From: a bacterium 1xD42-67
Lineage (GTDB): Bacteria > Bacillota > Clostridia > Oscillospirales > Oscillospiraceae
Assembly: GCA_003612335.1 (NCBI GenBank)
Contig: RAYO01000014.1
Location: 62,001 to 126,000 of the forward strand
Direction of reading: 5' to 3'
DNA: 64,000 nucleotides
Shown: positions 21,140 through 41,959 of the stretch, in pieces
How the letters are laid out: each line of letters starts with the position of its first letter
Position numbering within the stretch: position 1 is the first letter of the stretch
Notes under the pieces: model-generated
What the model saw: only the letters and a program-made list of their open reading frames with translations
Database searches by the model: none
What the model was told of the DNA's origin: nothing
Made by a program: the position numbers and the translations under genes

Positions 21140-21159
21140 TCCTATCATCAGTCTGTTTT

Positions 21160-21350
21160 TCCTGCTCGGTGCGTGATGGGTCCTTTTAAACCCACATTTT
21201 TAAAACGGGACGCCACCTCACGGCGCGGCTTGCAGGCCTCCCGGCCCCCTTATGAGGTCAGCTGGACGTTGGAAGCAGAAAAACGTCGTGGAGGCGACCC
21301 ACCTGCCATCTGTGCAGGTTTTAAACGGGCCCACACGGCCAGAGCGGGGT
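21160..21350 (+). ncRNA. ssrS: 6S RNA (clostridial type)
   Basis: No good reading frame; the RNA folds like 6S. The outer closing stem pairs GCTCGGTGCGTGATGGGTCC (21164-21183) with the complementary strand around 21327-21345, with single bulged A residues. Inside are A/T-rich single strands (CTTTTAAACCCACATTTTT on the 5' side, GGTTTTAAAC on the 3' side), the classical open bubble. A small 3' hairpin ACCTGCcatctgtGCAGGT and the GGAGGCGACCCACCTG context are as I recall them for clostridial 6S RNA. The product mimics an open promoter and binds the housekeeping RNA polymerase in stationary phase. Ends are approximate. Confidence 0.78.
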
Positions 21351-21380
21351 TAAAAAAAGCCATAGTGATCCAGCCTTTGG

Positions 21381-25374: not shown

Positions 25375-25388
25375 TATATGTGGCACAC

Positions 25389-25502
25389 CCTCATCTTTCG
25401 ATACACTACCGCCGGATTTAGCACCTTGCATCAACAGATCAGCTCCGCTTTTGCAGGTTGCCGGGCTTCATCGGGCCGTTCCCTCCACCGCTCTTGATAA
25501 GG
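25389..25502 (-). promoter_or_regulatory. SAM-I (S-box) riboswitch
   Basis: The minus strand reads CCTTATCAAGAGCGGTGGAG, then GGGAACGGCCCGATGAAGCC and CGGCAACC, then GGTGCTAAATCCGGCGG and GAAAGATGAGG. These are the conserved core parts of the S-box. Stem P1 pairs CCTTATC with GATGAGG. SAM binding should favour the downstream terminator and shut off metK. Confidence 0.95.
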
Positions 25503-25522
25503 CTATTCAGTTGTCTGGGATG

Positions 25523-36923: not shown

Positions 36924-37010
36924 GCGGCTGTGCTGGAATTGGTAGACTGGCAAGCTTGAGGTGCTTGTGTCCGTATGGGCGTACGGGTTCGACTCCCGTC
37001 AGCCGCACCA
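36924..37010 (+). tRNA. tRNA-Leu (anticodon GAG)
   Basis: An 87-base class II tRNA including encoded CCA. The acceptor stem is GCGGCTG / CAGCCGC, the anticodon stem CAAGC / GCTTG with loop TTGAGGT (anticodon GAG, reads CUC/CUU), a long variable arm TGTCCGTATGGGCGT, and T arm ACGGGTTCGACTCCCGT. Confidence 0.97.
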
Positions 37011-37368: not shown

Positions 37369-40300
37369 TCAGAATGGTCCAAAGCCGGATCGATCATATC
37401 GGTCGAAGGAGATATCCGGTCTCTCCCGCCTGCAGTCGTGCTTTACTCTTTCTGGGATCGAGCCAAGGAAATAGTCTTCGATCAGGTCCCAGCGGGCCTC
37501 ATTGGAAAGATCCCCTTCATAAAGGTAAGTGAGCATCTTCACAGAGATCAAATGTCTCTCTGATACAGCATCCAACAGCCTATTGTCATAGCGATAGGGG
37601 GCATTTATGATATTTTTGAGCGCCTGGATCTGGTTGATATAGATATACAGCTGGCTGTTGGCGCCGCCGATCATCTCGAAGGAGAGCACGCCCATGGCTT
37701 CCAGGATGCCCAGGATGACACCGTATCCCTTGCTCTGCTTACTGTTATCGTTCATGAGATACAGCTGGCCGTTTTGGACCTCCTGTTCGATCCTCCGGGC
37801 TCCGGACTCGACCCACTGGAAATAGGAATCCACAGCCACATTGAACTGATACTTGGTCTTCCCTCCTGTAGTCGTCTTTTCCAGTACGATCGGAGTAGCG
37901 GAACGAGCAAAGTTTTTCCGGTAGGGATCCATCGATGCGATCAGGACCTCGCAGATCGTCTGGGCTTTGTACCGATTGATATCGCAGGATACGGTCAGGG
38001 CCTCGGCGATCTCTGAGACCGCAGTATGTTCAGAAGATATGACCTTTTTCCTGATAAAGCCCTTCAGTGCGCCCCAGATGTTCTGGAACGAACTGGAGTG
38101 GTCGTGACTGAACGCGACCGTGACGCACAGCGCAGGGTCCATCGGATATTTGGCCACCAGGTCCAGATGTTCAGAGTCCTTCGAATAGAGCATGAACTTG
38201 AATTCGGGGAAGGACTGATCCTGATAGTCCTTCGACCAGATCTGGCTCAAAAATACCCGGCAGATATGCTTGCTGCTCTCGATCTCCTGCACAGAATCGG
38301 GATAACGCGCCAGGAGCTTTTCCTGTATCTTTGGGGATATCCCAAAGAATCCCACGGAGAACATCGGGATCGGACGGACGTTGATGGGGGAGAAGCCGGT
38401 CTTCGCCTCGAAGTCTTTCTGGATCAGGAGGAGCGCGGTCTTCACCTTATTGATATTGTTGTCTTCATCGCTGGCCGGTGAAGCGAAGATATAAGAAAAG
38501 TTCTCAGCGTCCAACAGCATCGCGTTCCGCCGTTTGGTGAGATCCCTGCGTTTATCGGTCCGCATGCTCCGCTGATACAGCTCGTCTATCTTCTTGATGA
38601 CCTGAATCAGCTGATACTTCTGTATCATCGACAGACCGTGCAGGCGGTTGATATGCTTGAAGTCCCGGGGGTTGTAGTAATACAGCGCCTCGCCTCTCAG
38701 GTCCTCCCGTCTTGCGGCGCGGCCGATCTCCTGGACATAGTCGCAGACGTTGCCCGTCGGGGCAAAGTGGGCCACCAGCTCGATATCATTGATGTCGATC
38801 CCCATGCCGAACGCTTTCGTCGCGAGCATCACGAGCTTTTCTTTCGCAAGGAACCTCTCATAGTTTTCCTGTTTCTCATCTTTGCTGAGAGATCCATGAT
38901 ATATCGCGACGTGTCCGGCCTCATGCCTGCTCCTCAAATACTCGTAGCATCTGTTGATCAGCGCGACCGTGGGGAAATAAATCAAGGTCTTCTTGTTCGT
39001 GATCAGTGCGCGGTGGAGGATCTCTTCGATCTGGACGAATTTATCCAGCTCATATTCCGTCCGGCCCCCTCTCAGCTTTTGAGGATGTCTGATATCGATA
39101 TCGATATCTCTGCGCTTGACATATCCCAGATAGGTGATGGGGCTCAGCATATGGAGGCTGTTGATCGTTTCGGTGTACATATCCTCGACGCCGCGGTAGA
39201 TGGCCGTGGCTGTGAAGGTAGCGATGACGAAGGACCGGCCCTTGCTGGTCAGCTGCTTTTTCCTGAGTTTTCGGATGTGGTCGCCCAGATACCAGTAATC
39301 CGGCCGGAACTGTTTGCCCCAGGTGGTGACGATATGGGCCTCGTCGATGACGATCATGCCGATGGTCCTGTCGCCGATCAGCTGTTCCACATCGCTGCGG
39401 CTCAGCAGCGTCTCAGGGGAGAGATAGAGGATGTGATACTGTCCGTCGGAGACCTTTGTGATGATATCCTGTTTGATGATGGGCGAGATGTCTGAGTTGA
39501 TCGTTTTGGCATAAGGATATTTTTTCAGCTCCAGATTCTTCACCTGGTCGTTCATGAGACCGATGAGGGGGGAGACGACGATGGTGAGGAGACCATACTG
39601 TTCCGCGAGATAGATCGCAGGCACCTGGAACATCACCGATTTGCCGGCGCCGGTAGGTGCGGTGACGAACACGTCCCTAAAATCCTGTCCGTTGCCGCAA
39701 TGCTCCACTTCTTCTATCAGGTCGGCGATGATCCTCTCCTGAGACACCTGCTTGACGACCTTTTCCCCCCGGTCAAGGGCGTTCATGTCGTAGACGTCGA
39801 GGGTCCGGAAGGACGGATATCCCCAGTATTTTTTTAGGATATCCCCGTATCCCGCCCTGGGCACATAGTCGTCCCTGAGCTCCTGGGTCTGGAGGAAGGA
39901 TATAGCGGTATGGTCCTTCCAATAGTGGGAGATGACCGAGATATGATCCCTGAGCCTGCCGGCGTCACCTGTGTAATTAGATATACGGACATACAGCTCG
40001 TCCGGTCCAGTGAGGAGGCGCCTGACGAGGCCGACGTAGTCTGATTCCTCCAGGATCTCCAGGAAGCTGGCCGGCTGCTCGGCAGAATAGACGAGTTCGT
40101 CCCTTTCGTCATCGAAGAGATCCACAGTGATGACCTTGGGGCTTTGGAGGGCGGCGACGGGGGAGTAGACGCCGATCAGCTGGCCGTCGCATTCCTTCAG
40201 CCCCTGGAACATGGCGATATATTCGTCGATGTCTCCGATGTAGCTGTCGTCGGATCCGCTGTCATCCGATTCGGCGTAATGATTCAAAAGGCCGGAACGG

Positions 40301-40617
40301 ACCGTATCATCAAAGTGCTCCTCGATGGGATACTGGTCCATATAGATATTGTTGTTGAGGATGGTGACTTCCTTATACTGAAGGACGATCAGATCGGAGA
40401 GGATGAGGAACTCCTCATAGCTCAGATATGTCCTCTTCCCATAGATCGACAGGAGATACCCCAATTTGTTCGACACGGCCTCGGACAGGTCCAGCCGCGC
40501 CACAGAAGGCTCAACGGCGGACAGAGGGATCCCCTTCAATACGACGATCGAACCGCTGGCGATATCCGATCGTGCCGTTCTTTCTGCCAAGCGGTCCATT
40601 ATCACACGATGAGTCAT
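37369..40617 (-). CDS. RecQ-like superfamily 2 helicase with large novel N-terminus
   Basis: A 1,082-residue protein. Residues 1-300 match no domain I recognise and include an acidic stretch (ESDDSGSDDSYIGDIDEY). The helicase core follows: motif I FVTAPTGAGKSVMFQVPA near 320, DEAH in MIVIDEAHIVTTWGKQFRPD near 425, which is RecQ-like, and motif VI QEIGRAARRED near 660. The last ~400 residues are also unassigned and have no obvious RQC zinc cysteines or HRDC domain. ATG 40617 (GGAGG upstream) shares ATGA with the sigma-factor stop, so the two proteins are co-translated. It could unwind DNA in transcription, repair or defence; the function is unknown. Confidence 0.85.
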   Translation of the reverse strand: MTHRVIMDRLAERTARSDIASGSIVVLKGIPLSAVEPSVARLDLSEAVSNKLGYLLSIYGKRTYLSYEEFLILSDLIVLQYKEVTILNNNIYMDQYPIEEHFDDTVRSGLLNHYAESDDSGSDDSYIGDIDEYIAMFQGLKECDGQLIGVYSPVAALQSPKVITVDLFDDERDELVYSAEQPASFLEILEESDYVGLVRRLLTGPDELYVRISNYTGDAGRLRDHISVISHYWKDHTAISFLQTQELRDDYVPRAGYGDILKKYWGYPSFRTLDVYDMNALDRGEKVVKQVSQERIIADLIEEVEHCGNGQDFRDVFVTAPTGAGKSVMFQVPAIYLAEQYGLLTIVVSPLIGLMNDQVKNLELKKYPYAKTINSDISPIIKQDIITKVSDGQYHILYLSPETLLSRSDVEQLIGDRTIGMIVIDEAHIVTTWGKQFRPDYWYLGDHIRKLRKKQLTSKGRSFVIATFTATAIYRGVEDMYTETINSLHMLSPITYLGYVKRRDIDIDIRHPQKLRGGRTEYELDKFVQIEEILHRALITNKKTLIYFPTVALINRCYEYLRSRHEAGHVAIYHGSLSKDEKQENYERFLAKEKLVMLATKAFGMGIDINDIELVAHFAPTGNVCDYVQEIGRAARREDLRGEALYYYNPRDFKHINRLHGLSMIQKYQLIQVIKKIDELYQRSMRTDKRRDLTKRRNAMLLDAENFSYIFASPASDEDNNINKVKTALLLIQKDFEAKTGFSPINVRPIPMFSVGFFGISPKIQEKLLARYPDSVQEIESSKHICRVFLSQIWSKDYQDQSFPEFKFMLYSKDSEHLDLVAKYPMDPALCVTVAFSHDHSSSFQNIWGALKGFIRKKVISSEHTAVSEIAEALTVSCDINRYKAQTICEVLIASMDPYRKNFARSATPIVLEKTTTGGKTKYQFNVAVDSYFQWVESGARRIEQEVQNGQLYLMNDNSKQSKGYGVILGILEAMGVLSFEMIGGANSQLYIYINQIQALKNIINAPYRYDNRLLDAVSERHLISVKMLTYLYEGDLSNEARWDLIEDYFLGSIPERVKHDCRRERPDISFDRYDRSGFGPF

Positions 40618-41732
40618 GATCGATCCTCCCAAAAATCATCCAATCTGCGCCGGCGAGAGGGATGCTGCATCTTTTTGATCGCTTTCGCCTCTATCTGACG
40701 GATCCGTTCCCGGGTGACATGGTATTCCGAGCCGATCTCCTCTAAAGTCATGGGATGGTCGTCGTCCCAGCCGAACCGGAGCTTTAGGATATCCCGCTCC
40801 CTTGGGTGCAGGGTGGCGAAGATCTTCTCCAGCTCATGGCGCAGGGCATGATCCAAGACGATCCCTTCCACAGGATCTTCCGCCTCGTCCGGGATGAGGT
40901 CCCTCAGTTCTGTGTCGCCGTCTTCACCGATCGGCACGTCCAAAGAGGTATATCCAAGGATATTCGCCTTCAATGTGAGGCATTCTCTCACCTCATCGTC
41001 GGAGCATCCTGTTTCAGCGGCGATCCGCAGGACCCTCTCGTGGGGAGGGGCCCCTTCTTCGGCCAATCTGTTGTGGATGGCGACCACTTTGTTGATCCTC
41101 TCCATCATGTGGACCGGGATCCGGATGGCATACCCGTTATCCATGATCTCCCGCGCGATGCTCTGTTTGATCCAAAACACAGCGTATGTACTGAACGCGG
41201 TGCCCTGCTGGATGCTGAAGCGCTGGGCCGCCTTGATCAGGCCCAAAAACCCGACCTGCTCCAGGTCCTGGAAGTCAAGGCGATTCCCATATCGTTTCTC
41301 GTAGGCGCTCACATATTTATCGACGAGCCGTTTGTTTTTGATGCACAGGTCCTGAACGGCCTGCCGGTCGCCTTGCTGGATCAGACTGCAGAGGATCTCG
41401 TTGGATTGACGTATCTCCTTATATACGATAAGGCTGTCGTTCCAGCCCTCAGGAGCTCCCCTGTCCTGGAACAGAGAGGGATCATACAGGATCTCCAGAT
41501 CCTCGTCCTCCAGATCGTCAGGCGCTCCGTCGCCGCTGTCTATATCCAGAATCAGCTCGCTGTCTTCGATATGGCGGTCCACAAGGTCGATCCCGTTCTT
41601 GTAAAGGATGTCAGTGACGATATACTGTTCTTTTTTAGACAGCATAGAGAAGACCCTGCTGAATTCATCATAGGTCATGGCGCTGTCCTTGACGTATGGC
41701 CTTACCATGCCGAGGATGATCTCTTCATTCAT
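40614..41732 (-). CDS. Sigma-70 family RNA polymerase sigma factor (RpoD-like, atypical)
   Basis: A 372-residue sigma factor. The N-terminal part (YDEFSRVFSMLSKKEQYIVTDILYKNGID) resembles region 1.1; an acidic linker follows. Region 2 has DLEQVGFLGLIKAAQRFSIQ and FSTYAVFWIKQSIAREI with the -10 recognition helix; region 3 is IRIPVHMMERINK; region 4.2 is MTLEEIGSEYHVTRERIRQI. It therefore looks group 1/2-like and not ECF, yet the window suggests an accessory locus, not the rpoD operon. ATG 41732 is preferred to an upstream ATG. The tail YHVTRERIRQIEAKAIKKMQ is well kept. Confidence 0.92.
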   Translation of the reverse strand: MNEEIILGMVRPYVKDSAMTYDEFSRVFSMLSKKEQYIVTDILYKNGIDLVDRHIEDSELILDIDSGDGAPDDLEDEDLEILYDPSLFQDRGAPEGWNDSLIVYKEIRQSNEILCSLIQQGDRQAVQDLCIKNKRLVDKYVSAYEKRYGNRLDFQDLEQVGFLGLIKAAQRFSIQQGTAFSTYAVFWIKQSIAREIMDNGYAIRIPVHMMERINKVVAIHNRLAEEGAPPHERVLRIAAETGCSDDEVRECLTLKANILGYTSLDVPIGEDGDTELRDLIPDEAEDPVEGIVLDHALRHELEKIFATLHPRERDILKLRFGWDDDHPMTLEEIGSEYHVTRERIRQIEAKAIKKMQHPSRRRRLDDFWEDRS

Positions 41733-41930: not shown

Positions 41931-41959
41931 TTGAAAGGATCCGGCGTTTGTGGTATGAT
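41931..41959 (+). promoter_or_regulatory. Promoter for response regulator operon
   Basis: TTGAAA and TATGAT with a 17-base spacer, 28 bases before the ATG. Confidence 0.7.

What the first reader, a model, noticed from the sequence alone, without database searches (positions are those of the whole stretch)
37369..41732. Sigma factor translationally coupled to a large RecQ-like helicase
Seen: a 372-residue sigma-70 factor with regions 1.1-like, 2, 3 and 4 ends in TGA that overlaps the ATG of a 1,082-residue helicase. The helicase has RecQ-like motifs (DEAH followed by TTWGKQFRPD) but about 300 unassigned N-terminal and 400 C-terminal residues. Known: RpoD-like sigma factors sit in dnaG-rpoD loci, and RecQ proteins are not normally paired with one. 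Inference: the helicase may be recruited by, or act on, a dedicated RNA polymerase, in stress transcription, DNA repair or anti-phage defence. The locus lies next to tRNA-Leu, a frequent insertion place, and a house-style promoter precedes it.
Basis: partly seen in the sequence, partly recalled or inferred. Interest (0 to 1): 0.78.

Follow-up and report, generated by a model that had tools for sequence, protein, structure and literature searches.

The report
Mobile sigma factor and helicase pair
A spare copy of the protein that tells RNA polymerase where to start is locked, gene to gene, to a large DNA-unwinding enzyme in a small cassette that moves between bacteria and on plasmids, often beside anti-virus genes, which suggests a bacterial defence that works through transcription; this has not been tested.

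Summary
A 372-residue RpoD-type sigma factor (40614-41732, minus) overlaps by ATGA a 1,082-residue helicase with a RecQ-like core (37369-40617). The pair is real: 67 of 72 helicase loci from public genomes carry the sigma upstream on the same strand; 2 of the other 5 are cut by contig ends. Sigma-linked helicases form one branch with one apparent loss, and distances of the two proteins correlate (r 0.88). All 18 host genomes searched have a separate true RpoD; so does the window's. The cassette is accessory: 1 of 64 genomes of the genus has it, its GC is below its flanks, and it occurs on plasmids and near defence genes, sometimes with a nuclease-helicase. The sigma keeps RpoD's DNA-reading residues but lacks the region 1.2 motif and has a changed 2.1 surface. 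The helicase's first 288 residues fold confidently without a Foldseek match in the PDB. Best reading: a horizontally moving, defence-type module whose sigma links the helicase to RNA polymerase at ordinary promoters. Module and patchy spread are shown; defence and mechanism are inferred. Ten literature searches listed no paper on the pair.

The parts
40614..41732 (-). RpoD-type sigma-70 factor, 372 aa (P0002), first gene of the module
37369..40617 (-). 1,082-aa SF2 helicase with RecQ-like core (P0001), second gene
40614..40617 (-). ATGA overlap: sigma TGA stop inside the helicase ATG; a GGGAGGA ribosome-binding-like stretch (by eye) lies just upstream, inside the sigma gene
   Evidence: sequence
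41568..41693 (-). sigma region 1.1-like segment (residues about 14-55)
   Evidence: NF006666 match from residue 14; the family profile matches three SigA chains from profile positions 7-15 on
41139..41339 (-). sigma region 2 (residues 132-198); -10 reading residues mostly kept
   Evidence: Pfam PF04542; alignment
40866..41102 (-). sigma region 3 (residues 211-289)
   Evidence: Pfam PF04539
40662..40820 (-). sigma region 4 (residues 305-357) with the same recognition stretch VTRERIRQIEAKA as the genome's own RpoD
   Evidence: Pfam PF04545
39754..40617 (-). helicase N-terminal domain (residues 1-288), ordered alpha/beta, no PDB match by Foldseek at E 0.001
   Evidence: AF2 mean pLDDT 86.8; Foldseek best E 0.03, prob 0.10
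38698..39690 (-). RecQ-like helicase core (residues 310-640)
37372..38550 (-). helicase C-terminal part (residues 690-1082), perhaps tandem winged helices (read by eye from predicted secondary structure)
   Evidence: AF2 model; conserved residues
41798..41826 (-). possible promoter TGGAAA-17-TATACT with TG before the -10
   Evidence: number of such hits not above shuffled expectation
36924..37010 (+). tRNA-Leu(gag); left of the stretch without similarity to the compared relatives

Best explanation
A horizontally acquired two-gene defence-type module. The first gene is a spare RpoD-type sigma that should still read ordinary -35/-10 promoters; the second is a RecQ-core helicase with its own N- and C-terminal domains. 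I think the sigma, bound to core RNA polymerase or as a partner of the helicase, brings the helicase to transcription start complexes, chiefly on incoming phage or plasmid DNA with host-type promoters, where it unwinds or blocks the opened DNA; in some lineages a nuclease-helicase then acts with it. Shown: the conserved pair, its one branch in the tree, patchy distribution, a sigma distinct from RpoD, kept DNA-reading residues. Inferred: defence role (about 0.65), physical link of sigma to helicase (about 0.4), action at promoters (about 0.35).
For: Sigma upstream on the same strand in 67 of 72 loci, 56 of them with a gap of -56 to +23 bases. One sigma-linked branch of 71 of 81 helicases with one apparent loss; Mantel 0 of 2000. 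Adjacency kept where the genes are divergent, on an Exiguobacterium plasmid. In 391 genomes of the class all 5 strong hits of the sigma N-terminus sit beside the helicase. R341, E342, R343, R345 and Q346 of the -35 recognition stretch invariant in 56 sigmas, stretch identical to own RpoD; module sigmas split from RpoD-type sigmas in a tree. Purifying selection on both genes. Plasmids; 165 against 19 PADLOC families matched among 112 neighbour and 112 control ORFs; SF1 helicase partners, two of those tested with a NERD domain. Patchy: 1 of 64 in the genus; in the family 8 of 300 have any match at E 1e-60, 2 of them with the sigma.
Against: No function has been tested in any paper that the searches listed. 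The window's own neighbours, read by eye, are not defence genes. In Selenomonadaceae the module often sits between the same chromosomal genes (clusters c8 and c9), as a stable locus would. Helicases without a sigma exist (11 of 81 rows; 4 of the 10 found in the class; all 3 closer viral-contig relatives), so the helicase can work alone. The loci were found with short peptide patterns of the window's helicase, which favours close kin. RpoD-like promoter reading gives no obvious way to tell foreign from self promoters. The window has another low-GC stretch at 30-32 kb, so low GC alone is weak evidence.
Confidence: 0.4

Rival explanations
1. The sigma is a regulator only: a private sigma that turns on the helicase (and perhaps neighbouring defence genes) when the host sigma is inhibited, for example by a phage anti-sigma protein; the helicase is the effector and never touches RNA polymerase.
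For: Sigma is the first gene and the genes overlap; sigma drifts faster than the helicase (dN/dS higher in sigma in all 7 of 11 pairs where both values were finite; two of the 7 share a locus and one uses a broken sigma's fragment), most of all outside the DNA-reading parts, as expected if it evades anti-sigma proteins.
Against: Its -35 reading stretch equals RpoD's and its -10 residues are mostly kept, so no private regulon is suggested. I read 63 upstream regions by eye and noticed no shared special motif, but ran no motif search. In 5 loci a third gene lies between the two.
Confidence: 0.33
2. The pair serves genome maintenance, for example clearing transcription-replication conflicts, and has no defence role; its link to RNA polymerase resembles human RECQL5.
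For: RecQ core; Foldseek hits include RECQL5; abstracts in the search listing say RECQL5 binds RNA polymerase II. Repeated chromosomal context in Selenomonadaceae.
Against: Patchy, on plasmids, defence-rich neighbourhoods.
Confidence: 0.15
3. The sigma is a decoy or sensor that phage anti-sigma proteins bind, which triggers the helicase or releases it.
For: Drift outside the DNA-reading parts: regions 3.0-3.1 at 23% mean identity against 68% for RpoDs of the same 18 genomes.
Against: A pure decoy would not need invariant -35 recognition residues. The low identity may reflect an older ancestor rather than a faster rate, and the DNA-reading regions too are less alike than in RpoD (4.2: 67% against 93%; 2.2-2.4: 55% against 93%).
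Confidence: 0.08

Closest known systems
MZA anti-phage system (MzaA sigma factor)
   Same: An RpoD-like sigma-70 encoded in a defence locus; P0002 scores 233 bits against both the MzaA model and a RpoD model. PMC9523054 (passage read) calls mzaA a sigma factor of the validated mzaABCDE system.
   Different: The MzaA model has 726 positions, and P0002 matches only 473-716; its score is far under the cut-off of 800. No match over the cut-off in 388 genomes of the phylum, but the control genomes gave none either, so that search lacks a positive control.
RecQ DNA helicase
   Same: Helicase core, DEAH and aromatic-rich loop (the loop's name is recalled).
   Different: Scores 207 against a RecQ cut-off of 640; extra N-terminal domain of 288 residues and about 390 C-terminal residues; none of the 5 Pfam matches is a RecQ zinc or HRDC domain.
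PADLOC model PDLC01089 C3a193, 'poss. alt. Cas3'
   Same: Covers almost the whole helicase (55-1053, E 3.5e-144): the same family.
   Different: A protein model; the call names no system and no sigma partner. That 'C3a' means accessory to type III CRISPR is my guess from memory.
DpdF and PsyrT defence helicases
   Same: RecQ-like SF2 core.
   Different: The best matches cover only residues about 313-696; DpdF NCBIfam score 136 against a cut-off of 550.
Housekeeping RpoD/SigA
   Same: Region 1.1-like start, regions 2-4, identical -35 recognition stretch.
   Different: Region 1.2 motif lost, region 2.1 altered with an insertion; score 213 against a TIGR02393 cut-off of 354; RpoD present elsewhere.
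Human RECQL5
   Same: A RecQ helicase tied to an RNA polymerase (abstracts in search listing).
   Different: Eukaryotic (recalled), no sigma; only the helicase core aligns.

Membership tests
RpoD (primary sigma) | TIGR02393 score over 354 bits | tested here: not met
   212.9 bits; all 18 genomes searched that hold homologues have another gene over the cut-off
RpoD (primary sigma) | -35 reading stretch VTRERIRQIEAKA | tested here: met
   identical to own RpoD; R341, E342, R343, R345, Q346 invariant in 56 sigmas
RpoD (primary sigma) | region 1.2 motif DPVRMYLKEIGK | tested here: not met
   replaced, with a 4-residue gap in about 95% of 63 module sigmas; largely kept in 19 RpoD rows, one gene counted twice
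MZA system | MzaA model over 800 bits | tested here: not met
   233.1 bits, sigma part only
MZA system | mzaB-E neighbours | not tested
   window neighbours were read by eye only
RecQ | RecQ-type helicase core with DEAH and following loop | tested here: met
RecQ | TIGR01389 over 640.2 bits; zinc and HRDC domains | tested here: not met
   207 bits; no such Pfam match
DpdF | NF041063 over 550 bits | tested here: not met
   135.7 bits, core only
PADLOC C3a193 protein family | near full-length match | tested here: met
   E 3.5e-144 over 55-1053 of 1082
Anti-phage defence system | protects against phage | not testable with these tools
   needs plating assays
Anti-phage defence system | found among defence genes more than background | tested here: met
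   165 against 19 PADLOC families at E 1e-25; rough, because families overlap and per-ORF counts are not given

The most novel reading that the evidence does not exclude
RNA-polymerase-guided immunity: a dedicated sigma factor uses RNA polymerase's promoter search to deliver a RecQ-type helicase, and in some lineages a nuclease-helicase, to the promoters of invading DNA. This would be a defence that finds its target by transcription initiation rather than by DNA modification, guide RNA or protein sensing.
Probability: 0.22. Interest if true: 0.92.

Novelty: new variant of a known kind. Interest (0 to 1): 0.7.

Why it matters
Sigma factors normally run host genes. Here a RpoD-like one has stayed with a single helicase in Bacillota, Gastranaerophilales, Mycoplasmatota and Deferribacterota, while the 18 host genomes searched keep their own RpoD. 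That makes a direct test possible: does a sigma factor aim an effector at DNA? It would also give a second sigma-containing defence design beside MZA, whose sigma has no role stated in the passage I read. The N-terminal domain of the helicase may be a fold not yet in the PDB.

Tried and rejected
Sigma-specific N-terminal domain of the helicase: BLAST suggested that sigma-free sisters share only residues 250-1055, but by eye their N-termini carry similar stretches, so the idea was dropped. Pure decoy: set aside because the -35 reading residues are invariant. Private promoter: 63 upstream regions were printed and read by eye without a shared special motif; no motif program was run. Integration at tRNA-Leu: no second copy of the tRNA end in the window; flanks in relatives differ from each other, so no clean empty site could be shown. 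The third gene C658 has no match in the window's genome (no positive control). MzaA: the phylum search gave matches mostly to the sigma part alone and none over the cut-off, without a positive control. Foldseek on the full helicase shows helicase-core proteins only, in the 50 rows listed for each library. Phage records: 4 matches, all to the core.

Rows left out: the helicase tree used 81 rows (L052, L071, L076 dropped as short or broken, L101 as distant; the other viral-contig loci L097-L100 and L102-L104 were not examined). The distance comparison used 63 pairs (sigmas under 300 aa, including the broken ones in L034, L052, L069, L076, and loci with short helicases left out). The neighbour test used 112 of 206 neighbour ORFs from 61 loci and 112 of 155 control ORFs, because of the tools' limits on rows and residues. 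Of 64 plasmid records with a match, five were opened: three have a sigma beside the helicase, two do not. Three core-only hits in the family search (G036, G078, G090) were not opened.

Full report
What is there. The sigma gene (40614-41732, minus strand, 372 aa) ends in TGA inside the ATG of the helicase gene (37369-40617, 1,082 aa), with a GGGAGGA stretch just before that ATG. Pfam and NCBIfam confirm sigma regions 2, 3 and 4 and a RpoD-like N-terminus, and a DEAD/Helicase_C core closest to RecQ. The genome has 24 Sigma70_r2 matches; the best is a RpoD-like gene on another contig beside a dnaG-like ORF (by eye).

The pair is conserved. A pattern-based scan of one genome per species gave 72 helicase loci. 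The sigma lies upstream on the same strand in 67 of 72; the five without are two contig ends (L030, L044), one apparent loss (L054) and two distant sisters (L079, L080). In 56 the gap is -56 to +23 bases; in five a third gene lies between; the remaining six have larger gaps or broken frames. In a FastTree tree of 81 helicases, rooted at the midpoint, the sigma-linked rows form one branch of 71 (99*) that holds one sigma-free row and two not scored. Pairwise distances of the two proteins correlate (Pearson 0.88, 63 pairs, 0 of 2000 permutations as high).

Sampling the other way. In 391 genomes of the class, 10 have the helicase at E 1e-150 or better; six have a sigma next to it, one of them a 953-residue form, and four have none. 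The sigma N-terminus gave 5 strong hits (E 1e-37 or better), all beside the helicase, and three weak hits (E 1e-11 to 1e-13) in genomes without it. So no orphan module sigma was seen.

It is accessory. Of 64 genomes of the genus two have a match at E 1e-100, and only the window's has the sigma. Of 300 in the family eight have a match at E 1e-60: two with sigma, three opened without, three core-only hits not opened. Module GC is 53.7% against 59.1% for the window, though 30-32 kb is lower still. Similarity to compared relatives stops at the tRNA-Leu 3' end and resumes at 41931-41949. Sigma and helicase pairs sit on plasmids of Enterococcus faecium and Lactiplantibacillus plantarum, and a divergent pair on an Exiguobacterium plasmid; two further opened plasmids have the helicase without sigma. 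Neighbours include type I and type II restriction-modification genes, Vsr and a type IV-like restriction helicase. At E 1e-25, 112 neighbour ORFs matched 165 PADLOC families and 112 control ORFs from seven of the same genomes matched 19; families overlap, so this is a rough measure. Against this, in several Selenomonadaceae the pair sits between the same chromosomal genes.

A third partner. Twelve of 72 loci carry a protein of about 658 aa with a UvrD-like SF1 part, seven before the sigma and five between the two genes. Its N-terminus looks NERD-like to my eye only: Pfam finds no NERD there, and the PADLOC 'NERD+UvrD' match covers just the SF1 part. A clear NERD plus UvrD protein directly follows the helicase in L057 and in the sigma-free viral contig L096.

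The sigma. Against 19 RpoD rows (one gene counted twice), 63 module sigmas keep the region 4.2 recognition stretch and the main -10 residues, but lose the region 1.2 motif, carry an insertion in 2.1 and share residues that RpoDs lack (N111 92%, K132 89%, G200 95%). They split from 21 RpoD-type rows, three of them under the RpoD cut-off, in a FastTree tree (support 89). Core identity among module sigmas is 42% where RpoDs of the same 18 genomes share 78%. Both genes are under purifying selection (dN/dS 0.03-0.27 where finite); it is higher in the sigma in the 7 of 11 pairs where both values were finite (dS is large in several, and two pairs share a locus).

The helicase. AlphaFold gives mean pLDDT 84.9 for the whole protein. 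Foldseek lists only helicase-core matches in the 50 rows shown. The N-terminal 288 residues, folded alone (pLDDT 86.8), have no PDB match at E 0.001 (best 0.03, probability 0.10). The C-terminal part looks like two winged helices, by eye.

How it may work. A sigma that should read ordinary promoters but has altered protein-facing surfaces, tied to one helicase, is best explained as a link between RNA polymerase and the helicase. A regulator-only role is nearly as likely. Defence is inferred from company and mobility, not shown.

Literature. Ten searches of the open PMC library were used. None listed a paper on a sigma and RecQ-like helicase pair, but several lists were cut (for example 15 of 9,734), and only titles, abstract starts and a few passages were read. 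PMC9523054 (passage) names mzaA as a sigma factor of a defence system; PMC12839542 (passages) reports a sigma-HTH-like domain in BrxL.

Noticed in passing
L211 5073-7934 (-): A 953-residue protein with a sigma domain only in its last 250 residues overlaps a distant full-length helicase; about 700 N-terminal residues have no Pfam match.
   Followed up: partly
L106 1-928 (-) and 984-4196 (+): On an Exiguobacterium plasmid the sigma and helicase are divergent, 55 bases apart; the sigma is cut by the record's start.
   Followed up: partly
L094 7248-10430: A sigma-free sister helicase sits right after a tape-measure-like gene in a viral contig, with an ADP-ribosylglycohydrolase-like ORF (both by eye) on its other side.
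   Followed up: no
L092 5910-6701 and 10791-11885: ADP-ribosylglycohydrolase-like and macrodomain-like ORFs (by eye) lie near a sigma-free sister helicase, one on each side.
   Followed up: no
L059-L061, L063, L067, L071: Gastranaerophilales module sigmas in these loci are longer (434-453 aa), in L059 with about 80 residues after the sigma domain.
   Followed up: no
L034, L052, L069, L076: Sigma (and in L052, L076 also helicase) reading frames are broken; decay or sequencing error not told apart.
   Followed up: no
window 21156-21354 and 25388-25503: 6S RNA and a SAM riboswitch.
   Followed up: no
L184 1-4778: In a same-genus genome the 3' side of the matching tRNA-Leu holds restriction-helicase-like ORFs (by eye), hinting at a variable site.
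   Followed up: partly
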